In this document: in pieces, positions 7,718 through 53,246 of the stretch
Layout: every line of letters starts with the position of its first letter
Position numbering within the stretch: position 1 is the stretch's first letter
Source: Lewinella sp. LCG006
GTDB taxonomy: Bacteria; Bacteroidota; Bacteroidia; Chitinophagales; Saprospiraceae
Length of the DNA stretch: 64,000 nucleotides
Direction of reading: 5' to 3'
Assembly (NCBI RefSeq): GCF_040784935.1
Contig: NZ_CP160680.1
Coordinates: forward strand, 4,879,802 to 4,943,801
The notes under the pieces: model-generated
Databases searched by the model: none
Seen by the model: only the letters and a program-made list of their open reading frames with translations
Told to the model about the DNA's origin: nothing
Translations under genes and position numbers: made by a program

Positions 7718-9934
7718 ATGCGTAAAAATATACTCTTGCTTTTAATAGCCTTCAGTGCAGGTAGCTTATTTGCCCAAAGCAGATGGACTACGGAGGAGGA
7801 AGAAAAAGCCATTGATGCTTTAATTTCCGAGATGACACTTTTAGAAAAAATAGGGCAAATGACCCTTTTTACCAGCGACTGGGATCAGACGGGCCCCACC
7901 TTGCGCGAAGGGTATCAAGAGGATATAAGGGGCGGTAGAACCGGGGCGATCTTCAATGCGCATACCGCTGATTATAACCGCGAGTTGCAACGAATGGCTA
8001 TCGAAGAAACCCGCTTGGGTATTCCCTTGATTTTTGGCTACGATGTCATTCATGGTTACCGTACTATTTTTCCCATTCCACTGGGAGAAGCAGCTAGCTG
8101 GAATACCACTTTAGCAGAAGAAACGGCCCGTATTGCCGCCCGTGAAGCTGCAGCTGCCGGCCTGCACTGGACTTTTGCACCGATGGTAGATGTGGCGCGT
8201 GACCCCCGATGGGGAAGAGTAATGGAAGGGAATGGAGAAGATGTTTTCTTGGGCAAAGCCATGACCGAAGCAAAGGTCAAGGGGTACCAGGGAGAAGATT
8301 TATCCGATCCTTTTACACTGGTGGCTTGTGCCAAACACTATGCCGCGTACGGAGCGGCGCAAGCAGGGCGTGATTATCATACCGTAGATATTTCAGAACG
8401 TAGTTTGCGCGAAACCTATCTTCCTCCCTTCAAAACTGCACTGGATGCTGGGGTAGGGACTTTCATGACCAGCTTTAATGAAGTGGATGGCCAACCAGCA
8501 AGCGGTAATTACCACCTCCTTACCGAAATTCTCCGCGATGAATGGGGTTTTGAAGGTTTTGTCGTTACCGATTACACCAGCATCAATGAAATGGTCCCTC
8601 ACGGGATCGTTGCCAATGATGCCGATGCTGGTGAGCTTGCCGTAAATGCAGGTGTAGACATGGATATGCAAGGCGCAGTCTATTACAATTACCTGGAAAA
8701 GAAAGTGGCAGAAGACAAGGTGAAACTAGCTAAAATAGACCAGGCCGTACGGCAAATCCTCCGTATTAAATACGCACTTGGACTGTTTGAAGACCCTTAT
8801 CGCTATAATGATATGGATCGTCAGGCAACGAATATTTTTACCGTTGATCACCGAGCTACGGCACGAGCAGCAGCACGGGAAAGTTTAGTATTGCTTAAAA
8901 ATGAAAACAATGCACTTCCCCTCGCAAAAAGTATTAGACAGCTAGCGGTTGTAGGCCCCTTGGCGGAAAGCCAGGAAGATATGCTTGGCGCATGGCATGC
9001 CGATGGCCGTGCCAGAGACTGCGTAAGTTTGCTGACGGGTATTCAGGCTGCTTTAGGTCAAACCACAAAAATTTCATACACACCAGGGGTGTCGGTAGAA
9101 GGAGACGACGAAACGGGTATTCCCGCCGCTTTGGCAGCCGCCAAATTGGCCGATGCCGTGGTGGTGGTGGTAGGCGAAAAGTGGACGATGAGTGGTGAAG
9201 CAGCCAGTCGTACCAGCATTACGCTACCGGGGAAACAAGCTGAACTGATTAGTCAATTGCATCAAACAGGTAAGCCTATAATAGTGGTATTACTCAACGG
9301 CCGTCCTCTGGATTTGAGCAACATCATTGATCATTCAGATGCCATCCTGGAAGCCTGGTATCCTGGCTCAGAAGGGGGGCATGCGGTAGCGGATATCCTC
9401 TTTGGCGATTACGTACCAGTGGGTAAACTCCCCATGACTTTCCCTCGCTCAGTGGGGCAGGTGCCGATTTTTTACAACATGAAAAATACGGGCCGCCCTT
9501 TTGATGCTGGAAACAAATACACAAGCAAATACCTCGACGAAAGCAATGATCCGCTGTTCCCGTTTGGTTTTGGCCTTTCTTATACCACTTTTAACTACGA
9601 AACGCCTACCGTCACCAAAGCGGCTTCGGAGGGAGATTTTACAGCTACCTTTAGTGTCAAGGTTACGAATACAGGCAAACGTTTAGGTCGGGAAGTGGTA
9701 CAACTTTATGTGCACGACCTGGTTGGCAGTGTCACCCGGCCACTTCGTGAGCTAAAGGGTTTTCAACTCGTCGATCTTGCCGCAGGGGAAAGTAAAACAG
9801 TCGAATTTACGCTCAGTAAAGAGGAACTGTCCTTCCTGCGCAGGGATATGACCTGGGGCATGGAGCCCGGTACTTTTGATGTTTATATCGGCGGGGATTC
9901 GCGAGCTACGCAAAAGGTTAGTTTTGAGTACTAG
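7718..9934 (+). CDS. bglX: GH3 beta-glucosidase (BglX-like), periplasmic
   Basis: 738 residues with signal peptide MRKNILLLLIAFSAGSLFAQ. The (beta/alpha)8 domain contains KIGQMTLF, PLIFGYDVIHGYRTIFPIPL, FAPMVDVARDPRWGR, AKHYAAYGAAQAGRDY and FVVTDYTSI, where Asp 285 is the expected nucleophile. The alpha/beta sandwich domain has LVLLKNENNALPL and WTMSGEAASR, with Glu 494 the likely acid/base, and a C-terminal Fn3-like domain follows (VKVTNTGKRLGREVVQLYV). Length and layout are typical of BglX. In this locus it would cleave short glucans made by the GH144 proteins to glucose; Bacteroides GH3 enzymes active on beta-1,2-linked disaccharide are known. The linkage specificity here is inferred. Confidence 0.92.
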   Translation: MRKNILLLLIAFSAGSLFAQSRWTTEEEEKAIDALISEMTLLEKIGQMTLFTSDWDQTGPTLREGYQEDIRGGRTGAIFNAHTADYNRELQRMAIEETRLGIPLIFGYDVIHGYRTIFPIPLGEAASWNTTLAEETARIAAREAAAAGLHWTFAPMVDVARDPRWGRVMEGNGEDVFLGKAMTEAKVKGYQGEDLSDPFTLVACAKHYAAYGAAQAGRDYHTVDISERSLRETYLPPFKTALDAGVGTFMTSFNEVDGQPASGNYHLLTEILRDEWGFEGFVVTDYTSINEMVPHGIVANDADAGELAVNAGVDMDMQGAVYYNYLEKKVAEDKVKLAKIDQAVRQILRIKYALGLFEDPYRYNDMDRQATNIFTVDHRATARAAARESLVLLKNENNALPLAKSIRQLAVVGPLAESQEDMLGAWHADGRARDCVSLLTGIQAALGQTTKISYTPGVSVEGDDETGIPAALAAAKLADAVVVVVGEKWTMSGEAASRTSITLPGKQAELISQLHQTGKPIIVVLLNGRPLDLSNIIDHSDAILEAWYPGSEGGHAVADILFGDYVPVGKLPMTFPRSVGQVPIFYNMKNTGRPFDAGNKYTSKYLDESNDPLFPFGFGLSYTTFNYETPTVTKAASEGDFTATFSVKVTNTGKRLGREVVQLYVHDLVGSVTRPLRELKGFQLVDLAAGESKTVEFTLSKEELSFLRRDMTWGMEPGTFDVYIGGDSRATQKVSFEY

Positions 9935-9994: not shown

Positions 9995-10165
9995 GGTAGG
10001 GTGGTGCTCATTTCATTCGCGGTGGTGTTCATCCCGATTCTCGGGATGCTCGCTAAAGCTCTCGGCTAGCTCGGCTATCGCCGACGCAGTCGGCATCACC
10101 GCGAACCCGACGAAAGGTCGGGAGAGCACCACCGTGAGTCCCGAAGTCTCGGGACGAACACTACC
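9995..10165. repeat. Palindrome-spacer array 1 (mirrored)
   Basis: Forward half: GGTAGGGTGGTGCTC (9995-10009), CGCGGTGGTGTTC (10018-10030) and the palindrome ATCCCGATTCTCGGGAT (10031-10047). The reverse half has the complementary spacer words at 10095-10106, 10123-10137 and 10155-10165, with palindromes at 10106-10122 (CCCGAC..GTCGGG) and 10138-10155 (GTCCCGA..TCGGGAC). The centre (about 10048-10094) is GC-rich, with CGGCTAGCTCGGC and GCCGAC..GTCGGC. It fills most of the 314-bp gap between bglX and susC. An 86-residue ORF across it (9972-10232) is just the repeat read as codons. Confidence 0.8.
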
Positions 10166-10248: not shown

Positions 10249-13239
10249 ATGATGATGAAGAACATAAACTGTGTTTTACTTTTCCTCTTGCCGTTCAGCT
10301 TACTAGCGCAGCGTTCTGTCTCAGGAACAGTCACTGATGCAAACGGCGCACTGATCGGTGTGAATATTCTAGCGGTAGGTTCTACTTCAGGAACTATTAC
10401 CGATCTCGATGGAAACTACGAACTGGTAGTGTCCAGTACAACCGATTCATTGGAGTATTCCTACCTCGGCTACGTCACTCAAAAGGTGGCTATCGCAGGA
10501 CGGAGTAAGATTGATATCGTATTGGAAGAAGCCATGCAATTGCTGGAACAAGTCGTTGTGATTGGCTATGGTGTCCAGAAAAAAGATGACTTGACGGGGG
10601 CTGTTTCTGTTGTAAGCTCCAATGAATTAGACAACCTTCCTTCCCAGTCATTAGGGCAGGCTTTGCAGGGCAAAGTTACGGGCTTGCAAATTATTCCCAC
10701 CTCGGGTGCACCCGGCGCAGATGCTATTTTCCGAATTCGAGGGGTTGGGACGCTCAACAACGCCGACCCACTTTTTGTAGTGGACGGCATGATCGTCAAT
10801 GATATCCAATTCATTAACCCTCAAGATGTAGAAAGCGTTTCTGTGCTCAAAGATGCTTCTGCAACGTCTATTTATGGCGCTCGAGGAGCTAATGGGGTCA
10901 TCATCATCACCACTAAACTTGGAAATACCGAAGGAAAGGGAACCATCAACGTAAGCGCATATACCGGTACCCAGGAAATTACCAAAACGATCGAATTGGT
11001 CAACGCCGAACAATATGCGACCCTCATCAATGAAGCGGATGTTAACGAAGGGCGTCAGCCTCGCTTTGCTGATCCCAGCCAATTTACGGAATCTACCGAT
11101 TGGCAAAACGAGGTGCTGCAAACGGCGGCCGTCCATAACATTCAACTAGGCATTAACGGGGGAAATCAAAAGTCTCAGTACAATATTAGCGCCAACTACT
11201 TTGGCCAGGATGGCATTGTGAAAGGTTCAGATTACGAACGTATCACCACTCGGTTCAATAATCAGCTGAAAGTAAAAGACTGGCTGACGGTCGCAAGCAA
11301 TGTTTCCTTAGGAACTTTCCATAGTAACAATATCAATGGTGGTGCTATCCTACTCGGGGCCTATCACGCCGATCCACTCACTCCCGCAATAGATTCGGTA
11401 GGGGACTTTGGAAATACCTCCGTTTTTGGCTCAACAGGCAATCCTGTGGCAACCATTTTTTACAATAATAACGAGACGCGGGGCTACAGGGTAGTCGGAA
11501 ATACTTATGCAGATGTTTCTTTTTTGAAACACTTCACCTTCCGGACCAATTTCGGTTTAGACTATGTGAACAATACCAATCGGGCATTTGTGCCCGTATT
11601 TGAAGTGTCACCTATTCAGCAAAACCAGCAGAACAAATTGACGATACGTAATGAGTCTTACCGCAACTGGCTGTGGGAAAATACCTTGTCTTACGCCAAT
11701 ACCTGGGGCGATCACCAAGTAGACGGCATCGCAGGCTTGACCTACCAGGATAATTTTGGCGAAAGCCTGGAAGGAAGCCGTCAAAACCTCGTAGGTGAAA
11801 GCCCCGATTTACTCTACATCAACGCCGGAGAACAACAGACCAGCTTTGCGGGTAATGGCATCTATGGTGGCGATTGGGGGCTGGTTTCCTACCTGGGGCG
11901 CGTCAACTATACCTTTGCCAGCCGCTATCTGCTGACGCTGGCAGGCCGCGTGGACGGTTCTTCCCGCTTTGGTGCCAACAACCGTTATGGCGTATTTCCT
12001 TCCGTAGGCTTGGGGTGGAATATTACGAACGAACCTTTCTTTCGGGAAACAGAACTGTTAAGCCGTTTAAAGCTGCGTTTCAGCTGGGGTAAAACGGGTA
12101 ACGACCGTATCGGCGACTACCAATATACAGCACTAATCCAAACAGGCCTGGGAGCCGTTTTTGGTACCACCGAGCAATTGAACCAGGGCTCTACCTTGCA
12201 AAATCTGGCTAACCCCGATATCCGCTGGGAAGAAACGACCCAGGTGGATGTAGGACTGGAAGCTGGCTTTTTCGACAACAAACTTCAACTAGAAATAGAT
12301 ATCTACCAGCGGACAACGGAAGGCATTTTATATGCGGCCGATATCCCTAACTATTTGGGTGCTGGTCCTCCTACCCAAAATATTGCGGAGGTACTCAATC
12401 AAGGGATTGACATGAAGCTGAACTGGCGGAAAAATGGCAGCGTTGTCCGTTATGGCCTTGGGGTGCTTGGCTCCATACTCCACAATGAGGTTCTTAAAGT
12501 AGACGATTTGGACAGTGACCTGTTTGGTGGTGGTTTGGGTATCGGTGGCCAATTGGGTACCAATTCTCGGGCAGGCAATCCGGTTGGCGCTTTCTACGGA
12601 TTGGTCGTCGAAGGAGTCTTCCAGAATCAAGAAGAACTGACCACCTATGCCACCCTAGGTAATCAAGTACCCGGTGATTTACGCTTCGCCGATCTTGACG
12701 GTGATGGTATCATTACAGCAGAGGGAGACCGGACTTTATTGGGTTCTCCCATCCCTGATTTTATCCTCGGTGCCAATGCATTTATTGAAGTTGCAGGCTT
12801 TGATCTGAGCGTGGATATCGTTGGGCAATTCGGCAACGAAATCATTAATGCCAAAAAAATGGCCCGCTTCGGCGCCTATAATTTTGAAACAAACGCTCTC
12901 GATCGTTGGACGGGCGAAGGAACGAGCAATAGCGAACCCCGCGTGACCTTTGGTGGAACCAATATCGAACGCCTGAGCAGCCGTTTCATTGAGGACGGCT
13001 CTTATATCCGACTACGAAATGTGCAATTTGGTTACAACCTCCCGTTGTCATTGGCACAAAAGATCTACCTGCAAAGCCTGCGCGTTTATGTGAGCGGTAC
13101 CAACCTGTGGACCTCCACCGATTACACCGGTTATAATCCGGAAATTTATAACAACAATGTCTTTGACAACGGAATTGACCGTGGCAATATTTACCCCGTT
13201 TCGAAAACGATTACGGTAGGGATAGACATTCAGTTTTAA
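10249..13239 (+). CDS. susC: SusC/RagA-family TonB-dependent outer membrane transporter
   Basis: 996 residues. After a signal peptide ending in LLAQ come a carboxypeptidase-like regulatory domain (SVSGTVTDANGALIGVNI, TDLDGNYELVV), a plug domain (VVIGYGVQKKDDLTGAVSVV, GVGTLNNADPLFVVDGMIV, SVLKDASATSIYGARGANG) and a 22-strand-type barrel ending in the aromatic-terminated ITVGIDIQF. These are SusC hallmarks. It imports oligosaccharides across the outer membrane with the SusD protein encoded 33 bp downstream. It follows the glucanase and beta-glucosidase genes, so short beta-glucans are the likely cargo. Two further ATGs (10252, 10258) could be the start instead. Confidence 0.95.
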   Translation: MMMKNINCVLLFLLPFSLLAQRSVSGTVTDANGALIGVNILAVGSTSGTITDLDGNYELVVSSTTDSLEYSYLGYVTQKVAIAGRSKIDIVLEEAMQLLEQVVVIGYGVQKKDDLTGAVSVVSSNELDNLPSQSLGQALQGKVTGLQIIPTSGAPGADAIFRIRGVGTLNNADPLFVVDGMIVNDIQFINPQDVESVSVLKDASATSIYGARGANGVIIITTKLGNTEGKGTINVSAYTGTQEITKTIELVNAEQYATLINEADVNEGRQPRFADPSQFTESTDWQNEVLQTAAVHNIQLGINGGNQKSQYNISANYFGQDGIVKGSDYERITTRFNNQLKVKDWLTVASNVSLGTFHSNNINGGAILLGAYHADPLTPAIDSVGDFGNTSVFGSTGNPVATIFYNNNETRGYRVVGNTYADVSFLKHFTFRTNFGLDYVNNTNRAFVPVFEVSPIQQNQQNKLTIRNESYRNWLWENTLSYANTWGDHQVDGIAGLTYQDNFGESLEGSRQNLVGESPDLLYINAGEQQTSFAGNGIYGGDWGLVSYLGRVNYTFASRYLLTLAGRVDGSSRFGANNRYGVFPSVGLGWNITNEPFFRETELLSRLKLRFSWGKTGNDRIGDYQYTALIQTGLGAVFGTTEQLNQGSTLQNLANPDIRWEETTQVDVGLEAGFFDNKLQLEIDIYQRTTEGILYAADIPNYLGAGPPTQNIAEVLNQGIDMKLNWRKNGSVVRYGLGVLGSILHNEVLKVDDLDSDLFGGGLGIGGQLGTNSRAGNPVGAFYGLVVEGVFQNQEELTTYATLGNQVPGDLRFADLDGDGIITAEGDRTLLGSPIPDFILGANAFIEVAGFDLSVDIVGQFGNEIINAKKMARFGAYNFETNALDRWTGEGTSNSEPRVTFGGTNIERLSSRFIEDGSYIRLRNVQFGYNLPLSLAQKIYLQSLRVYVSGTNLWTSTDYTGYNPEIYNNNVFDNGIDRGNIYPVSKTITVGIDIQF

Positions 13240-22001: not shown

Positions 22002-24125
22002 ATGCTATTATTGCAAGTAGACATTGCAGGATCCATGATCAACCTCCTGGTAGGTGTCGGTGTCCTGCTATTTTTTGGCTTCCTGGTGATGCTCGTCAAA
22101 TGGTACCGCAAGGTGCCCCAGGGCAAAGCCATCATTGCTACCGGATTGCGCGGTACGCGAGTTGCCTTCGAAAACGGCCTCATGGTCATTCCCGGCATCG
22201 AGATGTACGAAGAGATGGACCTCTCCGTAAAAACCATCGAAATCAGCCGGATGAATCAGGATGGTCTCATCTGTAAGGACAATATCCGCGCCGACATCAA
22301 AGTCGTCTTCTTTGTCCGCATCAACAAGGATTCCAAAGACATCCAAAACGTCGCGCAGAACATCGGCTGTGTCCGTGCTTCTGATCTCAATACCTTACGT
22401 GAACTCTTTGAGGCCAAGTTTTCCGAGGCCATCAAAACGGTAGGTAAGCGTTTCGATTTTGTCGAGCTGTACGACAACCGTGAGAAGTTCAACTCCGAAA
22501 TTCAAAACACCATCGGCGAGTACCTCAACGGTTACAAGCTGGATGATGTAAGCATTGATTACCTCGAACAGACAGATATCGAATTCCTCAAGGAAAACAA
22601 TATCCTCGATGCGGAAGGGATCAAGAAGATTACTGAGCTGACGGCCCAGCAGCGCGTCAAGGCCAACTTTATCCGCCGTGAGGAAGAAAAAACCCTCAAG
22701 GAGCAGGACGTAGAAGCCCGCGAAGCCATTCTCGAGTACGAGCGCCAACTGGCCGAAAAGGAAGAACGCCAAAAGCGGGAAATCGCCAATATCAAGTCGC
22801 GCGAAGAAGCGGAAATCGTCAAGATTACCGAAGAGGAGCGCCTCCGTGCGCAGCTGGTGCGGATCAAGACGGAAGAGGAGCTACAAATTGCGGAAGAAAA
22901 CCGCATGCGTCAGGTGATCGTCGCGGAGAAAAACAAGCAGCGTACCGAAGCAGTAGAAACCGAGCGGGTAGAAAAGGATCGCTTGCTGGAACTTACCGAG
23001 CGGGAGAAGATCGTCACCCTGGCGGAGATCGAAAAGCAGCGCGCCGTAGAAGAAGAGAAGAAAAACATCCAGGATGTCATCCGCGACCGGATCATGGTCG
23101 AGAAGCGAGTCGTTGAAGAGGAGGAGCGCATCAAGGACACCCGCGTGCTGGCCGAAGCGGACCGTCTCAAGCAGAAGGTCATCATCGAAAGCCAGGCCAA
23201 AGGCGAGGCCATCGTGATCGAAAAAGAGCGTGGTGCCGAAGCCGCTAAACTTGCAGCAGCCATCCAGGCCGATCAGTTGTTGATCGAAGCCGAGGCCAAC
23301 AAGCAAGCAGCCGAGAAGGAAGCCGAAGCCCGCAAAATCATGGCGGAAGCCAAAGCTGCGGAAGAAGCAACCCTCGGTCTGTCCGAAGCACAGGTCATCG
23401 AAGCCAAAGCCCACGCGAAGGAGCAAGAAGGTAAGGCCGAAGCCCTGGTACTGGAAACTCGTGCCCTCGCCGAAGCTCGTGGCATCGAAGCCAAAGCCGA
23501 TGCGATCAAGAAGCAAGGCATGGCCGAAGCCGAAGTGGCCGACCAGAAAGGCGCCGTAGACGCCAGAGTACTGGAGCTCAAACTGGCTGCCGAAGCACGT
23601 GGTGTAGAGCAGAAAGCCAACGCCATGAAGAAGCTCGACGGAGTAGGCAAAGAGCACGAAGAGTTCAAGCTTCGTCTGGAGAAAGACAAGGAAGTCGAAC
23701 TGGCAGGCATCAATGTGCAGCAGCACGTGGCCGAAGCCCAGGCGATGGTCTTGGGAGAAGCCATGAAGCACGCCAAGATCGACATCATCGGCGGTGAAAT
23801 GCAGTTCGTGAATAGCATCATGAACTCTATCAACCGCGGCAAGTCACTTGACGGCCTCATCAATAACTCTACGCACCTGAGTCAATTGAGCAATGGCCTA
23901 CTGAACGGCGGAGGCGGTAACGGTAATGGTGTCCTGACACAAGTCCTGGGCCTCATCCAAAAAGCCGGCCTCACCACCGAGACCATCAAAAACCTGACCC
24001 TCACCGCCCTCCTCCTGCGCCTCAACAACGAACTGAGTGGTGATGATCGTAGCCTCGTTCAGCAACTCCTTAGCAAGGTAGAAAGCCTTGGATTGGGAGG
24101 GGTAGAGGTTGGTAAGCTGATGTAG
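22002..24125 (+). CDS. YqiK-like flotillin (SPFH/Band 7 protein)
   Basis: 707 residues. An N-terminal membrane segment (INLLVGVGVLLFFGFLVMLV, about residues 10-30) leads into an SPFH domain (VPQGKAIIATGLRGTRVAFE, MDLSVKTIEISRMNQDGLI, DIKVVFFVRI, VSIDYLEQTDIEFL; about 35-215). From about 220 to 620 there is a long Glu/Ala/Lys coiled coil with repeated EAxA/EARG motifs, then a glycine-rich hinge (LLNGGGGNGNG) and a short C-terminal helical part. Flotillins form large membrane cages or microdomains. The stop codon TAG (24123-24125) lies inside the first spacer word of palindrome array 2. Neighbours suggest work with the OB-fold protein and the AAA ATPase. Confidence 0.92.
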   Translation: MLLLQVDIAGSMINLLVGVGVLLFFGFLVMLVKWYRKVPQGKAIIATGLRGTRVAFENGLMVIPGIEMYEEMDLSVKTIEISRMNQDGLICKDNIRADIKVVFFVRINKDSKDIQNVAQNIGCVRASDLNTLRELFEAKFSEAIKTVGKRFDFVELYDNREKFNSEIQNTIGEYLNGYKLDDVSIDYLEQTDIEFLKENNILDAEGIKKITELTAQQRVKANFIRREEEKTLKEQDVEAREAILEYERQLAEKEERQKREIANIKSREEAEIVKITEEERLRAQLVRIKTEEELQIAEENRMRQVIVAEKNKQRTEAVETERVEKDRLLELTEREKIVTLAEIEKQRAVEEEKKNIQDVIRDRIMVEKRVVEEEERIKDTRVLAEADRLKQKVIIESQAKGEAIVIEKERGAEAAKLAAAIQADQLLIEAEANKQAAEKEAEARKIMAEAKAAEEATLGLSEAQVIEAKAHAKEQEGKAEALVLETRALAEARGIEAKADAIKKQGMAEAEVADQKGAVDARVLELKLAAEARGVEQKANAMKKLDGVGKEHEEFKLRLEKDKEVELAGINVQQHVAEAQAMVLGEAMKHAKIDIIGGEMQFVNSIMNSINRGKSLDGLINNSTHLSQLSNGLLNGGGGNGNGVLTQVLGLIQKAGLTTETIKNLTLTALLLRLNNELSGDDRSLVQQLLSKVESLGLGGVEVGKLM

Positions 24126-24387
24126 TGGTACTCCCCCGGAAAGCCGGGGTCGTGGAGGTGCTCATCCCGATACCTCGGGATTCGCGGTAGTGCTCTTCCG
24201 ATTTCATCGGAATCGCGGTAGTGCTCGCTTCGCTCGCGGGTTTTTGCTGGCAATCTCACTACGTTCGTGAAAAAAAACGTGAGGCACAGCCGAACACCAC
24301 CACGAGTCCCGAGGCATCGGGACGAGTACCCCGTGATCCCGACAGCAGGTCGGGAGAACACTACGAGCGCAGCGAGTACCTACCCCC
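24122..24387. repeat. Palindrome-spacer array 2 (mirrored), spanning the gap between two convergent stop codons
   Basis: Forward units: GTAGTGGTACTC (24122-24133), the palindrome CCCCCGG..CCGGGG, TCGTGGAGGTGCTC, ATCCCGATACCTCGGGAT, TCGCGGTAGTGCTC, TTCCGATTTCATCGGAA, TCGCGGTAGTGCTC, GCTTCGCTCGCG. After about 45 bp the order reverses: GAACACCACCACGAG, TCCCGAGGCATCGGGA, CGAGTACCCCGTGA, TCCCGACAGCAGGTCGGGA, GAACACTACGAGCGCAGCG, GAGTACCTACC. The two outer words contain the TAG stop of the flotillin gene and, on the other strand, the TAG stop of the four-helix-bundle gene (24380-24382). Confidence 0.85.
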
Positions 24388-24742
24388 TTCGCTCCACCGC
24401 CTCGATGAACTTGGCGAGTTGGATACCTAACTGGATGCCTTGCTTTTGGAGTTGTTTAAATAACACTTCATCAGTAAGGGATCCAGTTTCAAAAAGCGTT
24501 TCGAGATGATCAATGGTTTCATCTTGGGAGGACTTAGAGAAAATGAGGAAACGAATGAAATCTTTGGGATATCGCCTTCGGCCTGTCCCTTCGACAATAT
24601 TCGCCCTGACAGACTTAGACGACCTTCGGATTTGAGACCCCGTTTCATACAATTCGAATTTTGGAAGCCCCATGCTCATCTTGTGGATAGCAATAGATTG
24701 CTCACGAGCGAGCTGCCAGATAGAGAGTTTGCGGTAATTCAT
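24380..24742 (-). CDS. Four-helix-bundle protein of the S23/IVP family
   Basis: 120 residues, [20 protein letters not shown], then [42 protein letters not shown] and [20 protein letters not shown]. The IRRSSxSVxANIVEG motif is typical of the family first found in 23S rRNA intervening sequences and now common as free-standing genes. The family is basic and may bind nucleic acid; related bundles serve as Avd accessory proteins in diversity-generating retroelements, but no reverse transcriptase is seen here. It is opposite in strand to the flotillin and ATPase genes on either side and bracketed by palindrome arrays 2 and 3. Its stop codon is inside array 2. Confidence 0.88.
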
Positions 24743-25049
24743 AAACCTACTGTTTTGTTAAGAATCCAATAAAAATAAGTTATTTGTTTTAAAAATAAAA
24801 TAATTAAACTTATTTTTTTGGAAAATTAGATCTTGCTAAGCCCCAAAGACGACCAAAAAACCGTGATCCGACAAAAGGTCGGGAGAACACCCCCACTCTC
24901 CCGATTTATCAGGATAGTACCCCCGCGATTTCGATGAAATCGAAAGAGCACAACCGTGAGGCGCAGCCGAACACAACCACGAGTCCCGAGGTATCGGGAC
25001 GAGTACTACCGTGATCCCGATGAAATCGGGAGAACACAAAAAAAATAAC
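24743..25049. other. Intergenic region: AT-rich inverted repeat plus palindrome array 3
   Basis: The 307 bp between the divergent S23 and ATPase genes. Next to the S23 start is an AT-rich stretch with AAAAATAAGTT (24771-24781) facing AACTTATTTTT (24807-24817), likely holding the S23 promoter. Array 3 fills 24862-25037, leaving 12 bp before the ATPase start. Confidence 0.55.
24862..25037. repeat. Palindrome-spacer array 3 (one arm only)
   Basis: All units are in the reverse orientation: CCGTGA, TCCGACAAAAGGTCGGGA, GAACACCCCCA, TCCCGATTTATCAGGA, TACCCCCGCGA, TTTCGATGAAATCGAAA, GAGCACAACCGTGA, GGCGCAGCC, GAACACAACCACGA, GTCCCGAGGTATCGGGAC, GAGTACTACCGTGA, TCCCGATGAAATCGGGA, GAACAC. There is no forward arm and no GGTAG-type end. 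It ends 12 bp before the ATG of the ATPase gene, so it forms the 5' leader or promoter region of that gene. Confidence 0.85.
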
Positions 25050-28000
25050 ATGTCCAATACCCAAAACATAGCCCTCGACACCGGCACTTATGACATTATC
25101 CGCGGACGATTGGAGCAGCAGGCCGATGCCTTGCGCCAGCGTTTAGCACAATTAAACGAAGAACGTAAAACGGTTTTTGGGGCCATCGAGACGACTTTGG
25201 TGGCGAATGACCGTATCCATACCGGCAACTACTGTACGGCGCGGGATGTAGTAGCTATTGGCGAGCATTGTATTTTTGGGTACAACGTACATGTGGGCTT
25301 GCGCTCCGGCATTAAGTTGTCGGATGTGTTTAGCGGCTACCGCTTTACGGAACAGCGTTTCAAAGAAGAAGAACTGACCATCCTCAAGGACGAAAAATTT
25401 CTGACGGATTTTCAGAACCTGTACCGCTATTACAAGGATGCTTTCTTCGCGCGGTTTTCTCGCCGGGGGCAGTACCTGTACATGGTGTTTCACCTCAACG
25501 AAGGGACGACGGATTTCAAGACCTTCAAGTGGTTAGTCACCGATGAGGGACTCCGCTACGTGGATAACCGCTCGGATCATGAAGTGAAGTTTCCGGAGCA
25601 GTACGAATTCCGCTGGCGGCTGGCCACCCGTGATGACCAGCGAACTGGGAAACACCCCCACGTATCGATCATGGACCGGGTGTTTGTGGAAACCGTGGGC
25701 GGCGATTTAACCATCAAAGTACAGGACAATACCAATGACGGACGCGGTATTTACGCCGAACCCGTCGAATACCCTGATCAGACCCTCGATGATGCGGAGT
25801 TCTCTTACGCCGATTTGGGCAACCTCATTGCGCTGCGTATTCGCCCTTATCAGGAGAAAGACCGTTATTTCGTTTTCAATGAAAAGATTCAAAAAGTAGA
25901 GCGCGTCGATGCTCTGGCGAAATCGGGTATTCTCTTGCCGGAAAGCCAGGGCTTGATCTTTGCCAACGGTTACTACCTCCAGACGGGCGAACACAAGCTC
26001 TTTGAGCAAGTCACCCAAGGCTTAGTGTTCAAAAAGAGAATCAGCTCCGGTAATGGGGAAGATTACCTCTTTGTGTTTTACGACAACCTGCAGGGGACGT
26101 ATGTGCTCTTGCCTTATAATATTATCAGCCAGTCGGTGACGACCCCGATCATTTGTAATGGCTTTACCCTTTTTCCTGGTGGAGAATTGTGCTATTTCAA
26201 GGCGGAAGAAGAAGCGACCAAGCACCACGTCATGCAGATCTGGCAAACGCCTTTTGTGGCGGATGTGGAGGCAAAGTCGGGCAACCAGGACAATTTCTTA
26301 TTCAAGGTAGGCAACAAGGACATTGTCCGCGCAATGGCCGAGTGCCAGGAAATCCTAACCCTCTGCGGTAAGGAAGACTCTTATGCCAACCTTTATGACG
26401 ACCTGGCAAAGCGGGTGACGGACGTGTTGGATGCTTACTACTGGATTGACGATCCCAAAGTTTTCCAGTTGGCCGAGGGGCTACGTCCTATTCGTGAAAC
26501 GGCCCAGGCGGCGATTGAAGAGTTTGAGAAAAAAGTGCGTACCCAACGGCAAACCAGCGATGCACTGGAGTCGGTGGCCAAGCGCGCTGAGAAGTTGTTT
26601 GACCGCATCCGTCGGGAGCGATTTGACAGCATTGAGCTTTTTGTGGAACAATTGGCGGCCCTGCGTCAGTTGCGAGGTGATATTCTTGGCCTCAGGGAGC
26701 TCCCCTTTACCAATGAAGAACTGATCGTAGAACTCCAGGCAGAAGCTCAAAAAAACAACGAAAAACTGGCGGAAGCGTGTGTAGAATTTCTGCTCCAACC
26801 CGAAGCATTGAAGCCCTACGAAGCGCAGATCAATCAACAGGCTAAGCTCGTTGGTGAGCTGAAAACGGCAAAGGCAGCCAGCGAATTGGAGGGAAGTTTT
26901 GATAAGATCGGTGGACAATTAGAGTTGTTGGTGGAGATGGTCAGTAATTTAAAAATTGCCGATGCAACCCAGACCACCCGGATCATTGATACCATTTCCG
27001 CACTTTTTACCCAGCTCAACCAACACAAGGCCGCCATTAAAAAGCGGGCGCAGCAGTTTCGTACCCAGGAGTCGGCAGCGGAGTTTGGTGCGCAGTTGAA
27101 GCTTTTGGACCAGAGCTTGATCAATTATCTCGACCTCGCAGATACGCCCGCGCGTTGTGATGAGTTTCTGACCAAGTTGATGGTGCAGCTCGAAGAGCTG
27201 GATAGTAAATTCGCGGAAGTGGAAGCCTTTACGCTTGAACTGACCGAGAAGCGGGAGGAGGTCTACGCGGCTTTAGAAAGTAGGAAGAACAGTCTGGTAG
27301 AAGCTCGAAACAACCGGACGACGGCCTTGGCCAAAGCGGCGGAGCGCATTTTTTCTGGTATCCAGAAGCGCACTGAAGCTTTCAAAGAGCTTGCGGACAT
27401 CAATAGCTTTTTCGCGGCAGATTTGATGGTGGATAAAGTACGGGACATCATCCAGCAACTCTACGCGCTGGACGATAGCAATAAGGCTGATCGTATCCAG
27501 ACGCAGTTGAAAACCTTGCAGGAAGATGCGGTACGCGGCTTACGCGATCGCCAGGAATTGTTTGTTGGTGGCGAGAACGTCATCCAACTGGGGCGTCATC
27601 GCTTCTCGGTGAATAGCCAGCCTTTGGAATTGACGGTGGTCAACGAGGGGGATGAGTTGCTGTACCATTTGACGGGTACAAACTTCTATCTACCCATCGA
27701 GGATGAGGTCCTCAATGGCAACAAAACCTATTGGCAGCAACGCCTCATCTCAGAAAACAAGCAAGTGTACCGGGGCGAGTACCTGGCTTTCTCTTTATTG
27801 CCAACAGCATTGGCACAAAAATGGGAGACGGATTACGATGCGATCTTGCCAAAGGTCCAGGAAGCCGCAGCAGGCCGCTACCAGGAAGGCTACACCAAAG
27901 GTATCCACGATGAAGATGCGGCGCGTATCTTGAGCGCGATGTTGACGATGCAAAGCAAGATCGGTTTATTGGCTTTTACGCCCAGTGAGCGGGCGTTGGC

Positions 28001-47351: not shown

Positions 47352-47747
47352 GGAAGGTCGCTTTTGGGATACTAAAGTTAAGCTTTTATTTCCAACCATG
47401 CAGGGGGGGACTGTCTGTATTTATGGAACGGTAGGGTATGGGGGGGCTTTTGTGCTCGCTTCGCTCACGGTGGTGCTCTTCCGTTGCACGGAATCGCAGT
47501 TGTGCTCTTCCGTTACACGGAATCGCGGTTAGTGCTCGCTTCACTCGCGGTGGGACTCTCCCGACCTTTCGTTGGGTTCGTGGTGGTGCTCGTTACACTC
47601 GCGGTCAGGTTAGGTAATACACCTTAAATTTGGGAATAACCCCGAGGGAACATTTGAAAAACCGCGAGCGAAGCGAGCACCCCCGTGAATTCCGAGAATT
47701 CGGAATGAGCACTCCCGTGATCCCGACCCTTCGTCGGGTGAGCACCC
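47352..47747. other. 396-bp intergenic region filled by palindrome array 4
   Basis: No gene. From about 47431 to the stop codon of the DUF5916 gene the region is repeat. The first 80 bp next to the thioredoxin-like gene are the only space for its promoter, unless the array supplies it. Confidence 0.6.
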
Positions 47748-47754
47748 CTACCTC
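47431..47754. repeat. Palindrome-spacer array 4 (mirrored, largest)
   Basis: Forward half (47431-47610): GGTAGGG, then TTGTGCTC, GCTTCGCTC, ACGGTGGTGCTC, TTCCGTTGCACGGAA, TCGCAGTTGTGCTC, TTCCGTTACACGGAA, TCGCGGTTAGTGCTC, GCTTCACTC, GCGGTGGGACTC, TCCCGACCTTTCGTTGGG, TTCGTGGTGGTGCTC, GTTACACTCGCGG. About 45 bp of other sequence follow. Reverse half (47661-47754): CCGCGAGCGAAGCG, GAGCACCCCCGTGA, ATTCCGAGAATTCGGAAT, GAGCACTCCCGTGA, TCCCGACCCTTCGTCGGGT, GAGCACCCCTACC. The last word contains the TAG stop (47748-47750, minus strand) of the DUF5916 gene. Confidence 0.85.
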
Positions 47755-52503: not shown

Positions 52504-52631
52504 AGTACCAGACGTGAAACCACATGAGTATTACCGGGAGATGTTGTTAACCTTTCCTGATGAAGCATCAAATACAAAATAATCAGACCACAGCGGCAAT
52601 CAGACAGGATGGCCCCAATCTCCCAATAATC

Positions 52632-53246
52632 ATGGCATATAACCCGCAAAAACACCGTCGCCGATCCATCCGTTTAAAAGGGTATGATTATTCGCAGGCA
52701 GGCTTGTATTTTATTACCATTTGCACCCAAAACCGCGCCTGTTTGTTTGGTGAAATCATAGATGGAGAAATGATATTGAACGATGCCGGAAAAATGATTG
52801 CAAAATGGTATGATGAATTGGAAAACAAATTCCCCGATATCCGGTGCCATGAAATGATCACCATGCCCAACCATTTCCATTGCATCATCGAAAACGTCGG
52901 TCCCCCCGTAGGGGCAGACCTGCGTGTCTGCCCGAATACCATTACGGATGGTAACAATGGAATTACGGATGATAACACATTGGACGAACAGATATTGGGT
53001 GAACAGACATTGGGCGAACACATAGGTTCGCCCCTACATCGGGTGGTGCAATGGTTTAAAACAATGACCACTAATGAATATATACGTGGGGTAAAAACCT
53101 TAGGTTGGCAACCGTTCAATGGGAAATTATGGCAACGAAATTATTGGGAACATATCATTCGCAATGAAAATACCTACCATCGCATTGCCGCATACATAAT
53201 AAATAATCCGAAAAAATGGGATGACGATAAATTGAAGTCGCAATAG
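52632..53246 (+). CDS. REP-associated tyrosine transposase (RAYT, Y1/HUH family)
   Basis: 204 residues from ATG 52632 (MAYNPQKHRRRSIRLKGYDY); the frame opens at 52560. Motifs: GLYFITICTQNRACLFGEI, HEMITMPNHFHCIIEN with the HUH pair His 81 and His 83, and the C-terminal YWEHIIRNENTYHRIAAYII, which holds the likely catalytic tyrosine. Such single-copy enzymes cut and move REP palindromes rather than themselves. Between the HUH motif and VVQWFKTMTTNEYIRG lies a segment of about 50 residues, made of two perfect palindromes joined by degenerate repeats, all in frame. The gene looks intact. Confidence 0.9.
   Translation: MAYNPQKHRRRSIRLKGYDYSQAGLYFITICTQNRACLFGEIIDGEMILNDAGKMIAKWYDELENKFPDIRCHEMITMPNHFHCIIENVGPPVGADLRVCPNTITDGNNGITDDNTLDEQILGEQTLGEHIGSPLHRVVQWFKTMTTNEYIRGVKTLGWQPFNGKLWQRNYWEHIIRNENTYHRIAAYIINNPKKWDDDKLKSQ
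52905..53053. repeat. Two REP-like palindromes inside the RAYT coding sequence
   Basis: GGGCAGAC-6 nt-GTCTGCCC (52912-52933) and GGGCGAAC-6 nt-GTTCGCCC (53022-53043) are both perfect 8-bp-arm palindromes with 6-nt centres. The outer flanks GTAGGGGC and GCCCCTAC also match in inverse. Between them are degenerate tandem words such as TTGGGTGAACAGACA and ATTACGGATG. Confidence 0.85.

What the first reader, a model, noticed from the sequence alone, without database searches (positions are those of the whole stretch)
24122..24387. A dispersed element made of constant spacer words and changing palindromes, mirrored into a giant inverted repeat
Seen directly: arrays at 9995-10165, 24122-24387, 24862-25037 and 47431-47754 repeat a near-constant 12-14 nt word (TCGCGGTAGTGCTC and close variants). 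Between copies sit 15-19 nt hyphenated palindromes that differ in sequence, such as ATCCCGAT..ATCGGGAT-type, TTCCG..CGGAA and TTTCGAT..ATCGAAA. In three of the four loci the order is repeated in inverse, so the whole element can fold back. This is the reverse of CRISPR logic (spacer constant, palindrome variable). Compensatory change within palindromes suggests selection on structure. Inference: a mobile or regulatory element class, perhaps moved in trans.
Basis: partly seen in the sequence, partly recalled or inferred. Interest (0 to 1): 0.72.

Follow-up and report, generated by a model that had tools for sequence, protein, structure and literature searches.

The report
REP-like mirrored hairpin arrays in Lewinella
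Dozens of gaps between genes in this Lewinella-type bacterium hold mirrored rows of small DNA hairpins whose letters vary while their folded shape is kept; they are best read as an unusual form of the known REP family of short, possibly mobile, palindromes.

Summary
In detail: the word clusters at all four named places (23 hits, 3.2 expected) and in dozens of other loci, nearly all intergenic. The reading changes. The word is not a constant spacer: its halves are the feet of neighbouring hairpins and covary across them. One unit is CC-RY-GA-[variable stem, often GNA or GNNA loop]-GA-RY-AC: a 2-bp foot, a 2x2 mismatch, a free upper stem. All 28 mixed arrays share one order, GA hairpins pointing away from the centre. 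Of 20 stop codons that arrays abut, 18 are TAG (background 33%). Between related species arrays are kept with different units, decayed or absent. These are habits of REP/BIME/REPIN repeats, thought to move as single-stranded hairpins cut by RAYT (HUH) transposases. RAYTs occur in the genus and two are flanked by hairpins of similar GA..GA shape, but none of 27 locus records read around such genes carries this family, and the GTAG tag is mostly degenerate. A new variant of a known kind; mobility and enzyme are inferred, not shown.

The parts
10004..10161 (.). Array 1, both halves, between a GH3 gene (7718-9934 +) and a TonB-receptor gene (10249-13239 +)
10048..10098 (.). Centre of array 1 (approximate limits), with a hairpin GCCGAC-GCA-GTCGGC that recurs, by eye, in other arrays
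   Evidence: similar centres seen in L002, L004, L005, L013 and L156
24128..24239 (-). Array 2, left half: four units with the GA strand on the minus strand; begins 2 bp after the TAG stop of the Band_7 gene
24277..24379 (+). Array 2, right half: four units with the GA strand on the plus strand; ends at the TAG stop of the minus-strand four-helix-bundle gene
24380..24742 (-). 23S_rRNA_IVP / four-helix-bundle protein gene between arrays 2 and 3; a similar neighbourhood exists in G199; not taken as part of the element
   Evidence: the two other copies in the genome have no array beside them
24861..25037 (+). Array 3: one-orientation array reaching the A-rich leader of the next gene
   Evidence: the parser starts it at 24923; the first two units are read
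47452..47604 (-). Array 4, left half
47605..47661 (.). Centre of array 4, ending in AAAAACCGCG
47662..47745 (+). Array 4, right half; its outer end lies 2 bp from the TAG stop of the minus-strand DUF5916 gene

Best explanation
The arrays are a REP/BIME-type family of palindromic repeats with an unusual, structure-defined unit. Shown: each unit is a hairpin with a 2-bp foot (RY/RY), a 2x2 mismatch (GA/GA on one strand, TC/TC on the other), a variable upper stem and a preferred GNA or GNNA loop (TNC/TNNC on the other strand), with a short degenerate GNNG stretch before it on the TC strand. Units stand head to tail in two halves around a centre, always in the same sense, and often start right at a TAG stop codon. 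Between species arrays are kept with other units at some sites, and decayed or absent at others. Inferred: a founding copy was placed next to (G/T)TAG as single-stranded DNA by a Y1 HUH transposase of the RAYT kind that reads foot and mismatch, so that the upper stem may drift as long as it pairs; later units were added in the orientation of the existing words, or by slippage and recombination; the cognate RAYT is lost, undetected, or one of those present acting in trans.
For: Foot covariation: a scan asking only for R and Y at the foot kept 97 units, 76 with Watson-Crick letters at both foot pairs; the reversed control, not filtered for stems, had 17 of 57. Shuffles: 0 of 500 reach the covariation score or the share of paired cells for 17 long and 29 short units. 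Loops: 29 of 29 short units have GNA though only a 2-bp stem was asked for; 77 of 90 triloops in a wider parse. Mismatch: 70 of 124 array hairpins flanked GA..GA, 17 of 1248 in other gaps. Order: 28 of 28 mixed arrays. Edge: 18 of 20 abutting stops are TAG against 32.6% of 463 genes, p 1.6e-7. Species differences. Y1/RAYT genes in all 4 genus genomes; by eye, hairpins beside L172 and L119 have GA-stem-loop-stem-GA, and L172 has doublets in the same TC-then-GA order. Literature: E. coli REP needs an unpaired 2x2 place while loop and upper stem tolerate change (PMC8266576, passages); REPs lie near 3' ends and often supply a TAG stop (PMC3733652 section 15).
Against: No W unit in 27 locus records read around Y1, RAYT or IVP genes (one E 0.44 match ignored). 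GT[AG]G in only 29 of 124 internal linkers. Flanks beyond the arrays did not align cleanly, so no exact insertion was seen. TAG is also frequent at stops that the array does not touch (7 of 10 by my reading), which insertion at TAG does not explain. In some searches two of five measures did not exceed the shuffles (pairs changed on both sides 180 and 156 of 500; further pair types 462 and 381 of 500). The scanner behind requires GA on both sides and rewards GNA loops and G.T on the GA strand, so counts from it are biased.
Confidence: 0.6

Rival explanations
1. Passive growth: hairpin-prone DNA multiplied by replication slippage and template switching, which perfects palindromes and makes inverted copies, without a transposase.
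For: Twelve tandem copies of one unit at G000 6823906; different unit numbers around a similar centre at the orthologous 3846467 site; no cognate transposase found.
Against: Template-switch correction should also repair the GA/GA mismatch, which is kept; slippage does not explain dozens of dispersed loci with the same words, nor the TAG edge.
Confidence: 0.2
2. RNA elements of 3' untranslated regions: transcribed hairpins that end or protect messages, kept by selection at gene ends.
For: 18 of 48 array-to-3'-end distances are -1 to 4 bases; of 45 intergenic clusters 33 are between codirectional, 7 convergent and 5 divergent genes, against 344, 138 and 167 of 649 gaps of 60 bases or more (its gene calls miss short genes, the IVP gene among them, so two window arrays are mislabelled); foot wobbles are 22 G.T against 8 A.C on the GA strand, stem wobbles 12 against 10; terminator-like sites in 23900-25200 are 6 against 1.7 in shuffles, 4 of the 6 in the arrays.
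Against: The two halves always face opposite ways; arrays are absent or decayed at some orthologous gene ends; no Rfam match in the window (gathering threshold).
Confidence: 0.15
3. A mobile unit carrying the four-helix-bundle (IVP) gene, with the arrays as its ends.
For: In the window the gene lies between arrays 2 and 3, and W-type units lie on both sides of it in G199 too.
Against: The genome has 3 IVP matches; the two others have no array, so the other array loci have no IVP gene.
Confidence: 0.03

Closest known systems
GTAG-tagged REPs, REPINs and BIMEs, in particular the E. coli type with a mismatch inside the stem
   Same: Intergenic, beside 3' ends; short hairpins with a 2x2 mismatch; inverted doublets and clusters; TAG at gene ends; several families in one genus
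   Different: Tag degenerate; only 2 bp below the mismatch; upper stems differ widely within the family (118 distinct hairpins in 182 units of two species); arrays of several units in strict dyads; no cognate RAYT found
Atypical secondary structures flanking subclass 2.6 TnpA_Y1 genes of Bacteroidetes (PMC6006769, section 13 and passages)
   Same: Bacteroidota; hairpins that do not fit the REP rule; copies elsewhere in the genome
   Different: Those flank a transposase gene; these do not in the records read
IS200/IS605 subterminal hairpins
   Same: Irregular hairpin; a short fixed word at the insertion point is the behaviour proposed here
   Different: No IS body or transposase gene between the halves in the arrays read
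CRISPR arrays
   Same: Alternation of more constant and more variable stretches
   Different: The variable part is a self-paired hairpin and the constant part its foot; cas genes were not searched for

Membership tests
GTAG REP | GTAG (or GT[AG]G) tetranucleotide 5' of the hairpin in nearly all members | tested here: not met
   G-TA-G or G-TG-G in 29 of 124 internal linkers; TAG at 18 of 20 abutting gene ends
GTAG REP | Short palindrome, intergenic, dispersed in many copies | tested here: met
   45 of 47 clusters intergenic, 2 single hits inside genes probably false
GTAG REP | Close to 3' ends of genes; termini often give the TAG stop | tested here: met
   reference behaviour from PMC3733652 section 15
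E. coli-type REP | 2x2 mismatch interrupting the stem, upper stem and loop tolerant | tested here: met
   (the last partly circular); reference behaviour from PMC8266576 passages
REPIN/BIME | Inverted doublets or mosaics with a fixed relative orientation | tested here: met
   28 of 28 mixed arrays of 54
REPtron (REP with its RAYT) | A RAYT gene flanked by the same repeat | tested here: not met
   0 of 27 locus records with R1 or R2 at E up to 1, apart from one E 0.44 match in L120; by my count 19 distinct Y1/RAYT places and 2 IVP genes, flanks about 1.5 kb; only 4 genus genomes
REP | Cutting of the single strand by TnpA_REP | not testable with these tools
   needs protein
CRISPR | cas genes beside repeat-spacer arrays | not tested
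   set aside on array anatomy only

The most novel reading that the evidence does not exclude
A repeat family recognised by shape rather than letters: a single-stranded DNA machine reads only a 2-bp foot, a tandem G.A / T.C mismatch and a GNA / TNC loop, so that the upper stem is free to diversify inside one genome, and the two halves are built outward from a centre as an oriented dyad at TAG sites.
Probability: 0.3. Interest if true: 0.62.

Novelty: new variant of a known kind. Interest (0 to 1): 0.45.

Why it matters
How RAYT-type enzymes recognise their repeats, and how REP arrays grow, is still open. A family whose upper stems vary while foot, mismatch, loop preference and orientation stay fixed is a natural mutational scan of that recognition, and related species with arrays at the same sites let gain, loss and drift of units be followed.

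Tried and rejected
A position-weight matrix grown by iteration drifted to noise (426 sites against 205 in reversed sequence above 12 bits) and was dropped. The loose flank pattern alone is barely above its control (283 against 203). Strict word clusters gave 9 loci in 1.6 Mb, so a structural scan replaced them; at its score of 20 it gives 162 units against 9 in reversed sequence. The IVP gene as driver was rejected. The four PF01797 genes of the genome are flanked, by eye, by other hairpins; their flanks match a few other places in the 2 Mb sampled for L118, L120 and L121, and only one for L119 (self matches not removed). A RAYT-like gene in the window (52560-53246) has no W unit within its fetched flank. 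The single viral-contig hit has no array around it and is taken as chance. In the scan of named genomes 6 of 16 stretches are Lewinella cohaerens; the other 10 are single hits in other taxa, taken as chance but not read (the tool may leave out the own genome). R1 gave 2 of 199 family genomes and none in G199, yet R2 finds G199 units at E 3e-7 in a locus fetched later: R1 misses carriers, and R2 was not run over whole genomes. The strand-energy comparison (GA lower in 136 of 192 with RNA and 135 of 192 with DNA parameters) is weak because the parser favours the GA strand. Searches for earlier reports; only asked for Lewinella repeats, and its one hit was seen in the listing only.

Full report
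Observation. The window is bases 4,879,802-4,943,801 of a 7.5-Mb single-contig genome. The four arrays are there. The word with up to three mismatches occurs 23 times in the window against a shuffled mean of 3.19. In the whole genome TCGCGGTRGTGCTC occurs 7 times exactly, its reversed control 0 times; with two mismatches the excess is about 1.7-fold.

What a unit is. Listing what lies between GTRYTC and CRYGG (283 places, 203 in reversed sequence) showed that in the clusters the halves of the word covary: GTGCTC goes with CGCGG, GTGTTC with CACGG, GTACTC with CGTGG. On the other strand a unit reads CC-R-Y-GA-[stem-loop-stem]-GA-R-Y-AC. A scan asking only for R and Y at the foot gave 142 matches against 57 in reversed sequence; with a stem of two or more 89 against 9, of four or more 42 against 0. 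Of the 97 units kept (stem of 2 or more, or a very short loop), 76 have Watson-Crick letters at both foot pairs: 40 GC/GC, 23 GT/AC, 11 AC/GT, 2 AT/AT. The 57 control matches, not filtered for stems, have 17. Inner stem pairs were part of the selection, so only foot pairs and loops are independent. Seventeen long and 29 short units aligned without gaps. For both, 0 of 500 shuffles reached the covariation score, the share of paired cells or the number of cells changed on both sides; the other two measures (pairs changed on both sides, further pair types) were not above the shuffles. All 29 short units carry a GNA loop, which was not asked for. In a wider parse of both species, 182 units hold 118 distinct hairpins; 334 of 364 foot pairs are Watson-Crick, 22 G.T and 8 A.C on the GA strand; 77 of 90 triloops are GNA and 31 of 77 tetraloops GNNA. 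That GNA loops and tandem G.A pairs make unusually stable DNA hairpins is recalled knowledge, not from a call.

The mismatch. In array regions any hairpin of five or more pairs was taken: 124, of which 70 are flanked by GA on both sides of one strand; other gaps gave 17 of 1248. On the GA strand 34 of those 70 loops are GNA/GNNA and 0 are TNC/TNNC; in the control gaps the two kinds are 84 and 75 of 1248. The regions had been chosen by a scanner that asks for GA on both sides and rewards GNA loops, so this is partly circular. It does show two unpaired letters per side kept between two paired stretches, which plain palindrome repair would remove.

Architecture. The parser returned 60 clusters with 243 units in the pieces read of two genomes. 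Of these, 54 have at least two units and a best score of 20 or more. Counting units of score 16 or more, 28 are mixed and all 28 run minus then plus; 15 are all plus, 11 all minus, none otherwise. One unit of score 13 out of order at 6440072 falls below that cut. So GA hairpins point away from the centre, and on the TC strand the degenerate tag lies outside, as in the HH dimers of REPs. One centre hairpin, GCCGAC-GCA-GTCGGC with variants, recurs by eye. Linkers between units are mostly two or three letters; GTAG or GTGG stands in 29 of 124, 11 of the other 95 coming from one 12-copy tandem.

Position. Of 47 G000 clusters, 33 were placed between codirectional genes, 7 convergent, 5 divergent, and 2 single hits inside genes, probably false; among 649 gene gaps of 60 bases or more in the sampled blocks the numbers are 344, 138 and 167. 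The gene calls are rough: they miss short genes such as the IVP gene, so arrays 2 and 3 of the window are mislabelled there. Of 48 array-to-3'-end distances, 18 are -1 to 4 bases. Within -5 to 10 bases 18 of 20 stops are TAG, against 32.6% of 463 genes (p 1.6e-7). At 11-400 bases 15 of 19 are TAG. Reading these 19, seven (six TAG, one TAA) in fact start at the stop with a degenerate unit and two repeat a gene already counted; of the ten that do not touch, 7 are TAG. This last excess is unexplained.

Relatives. R1 finds 69 units in the own genome at E up to 0.1 (150 of 2688 candidates scored, so a lower bound), and 2 of 199 family genomes, the own one and G155. R1 reported none in G199 and G062, but a G199 locus fetched for the Band_7 gene holds W units that R2 finds at E 3e-7 and weaker. 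The family is thus in at least 3 of 4 genus genomes and R1 undercounts; its wider spread is open.

Orthologous sites. Aligned gene DNA of G000 and G155 is about 74-89% identical. Of eight sites printed, seven have units in both, with different hairpins and numbers (one reduced to a single unit in G155), and one has an array only in G155: the end of a gene that I read by eye as DNA polymerase I, where G155 has TAG followed by an array and G000 TAG without one. Of three sites, one has arrays in both around a similar centre (by my parse six left-half units in G000 against one in G155), one (467018) has a decayed remnant in G155, and one (6440072) has none in G155. At the DUF5916 end G199 has the same last residues and TAG without array. 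Flanks beyond the arrays do not align cleanly, so exact insertion is not shown, and the direction of change is not known. In G199, as in the window, W-type units lie on both sides of the IVP-like gene after the Band_7 gene; G155 has another dispersed repeat there.

The enzyme. PF01797 gives 4 Y1 genes in the own genome and 11 in the 4 genus genomes; NF047646 adds others, including one in the window at 52560-53246, below the curated cut-off. Scanning 27 locus records (by my count 19 distinct Y1/RAYT places, some fragments, and 2 IVP genes) with both models gave no W unit except one E 0.44 match. By eye, two flanking families share the shape: L172 of G199 has GYGA-GCGTC-loop-GACGC-GAAC in doublets ordered TC then GA on both sides of its RAYT, and L119 has CGA-GTCCT-GAA-AGGAC-GAC; most of the other flanks do not. 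The first has 10 matches with up to 2 mismatches in G199, 4 of them beside the RAYT itself.

Known systems. I read sections 5, 14, 15 and 16 of PMC3733652, section 13 and found passages of PMC6006769, and the abstract and found passages of PMC8266576. They state that REPs lie next to 3' ends, that their termini often give a TAG stop, that dimers with tags outside are common, that E. coli REP needs its unpaired place while loop and upper stem tolerate change, and that a Bacteroidetes subclass of TnpA is flanked by atypical structures. The arrays agree with these points but fail two membership features, a conserved GTAG tag and a RAYT flanked by the same repeat. They are best called REP-like.

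Verdict. A real, structured, dispersed family; a new variant of a known kind. Structure, foot covariation, order, 3'-end position and differences between species are shown; single-stranded mobility, recognition by shape and the acting enzyme are inferred.

Noticed in passing
window 52560-53246 (+): A RAYT-like gene (NF047646, E 7.5e-16, below the curated cut-off) whose open frame holds, by eye, palindromic stretches with GTAG at about 52905-52940 and 53010-53045, as reported for subclass 2.4 genes (PMC6006769 section 13).
   Followed up: partly
L118-L121, L170-L176: The Y1 transposase genes read in the genus have, by eye, different hairpin families beside them, so several REP-like families coexist.
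   Followed up: partly
G000:C1:6823906-6824229 (L219): Twelve tandem copies of one short unit (GGAAC hairpin) in one array, a local expansion.
   Followed up: no
L277, about 777-1494: In G199 an IVP-like (four-helix-bundle) gene after Band_7 also has W-type units on both sides, as in the window; G155 has a different dispersed repeat in that place.
   Followed up: partly
genes whose 3' end faces an array without touching it: TAG stops are frequent there too (7 of 10 by my reading), without explanation.
   Followed up: no
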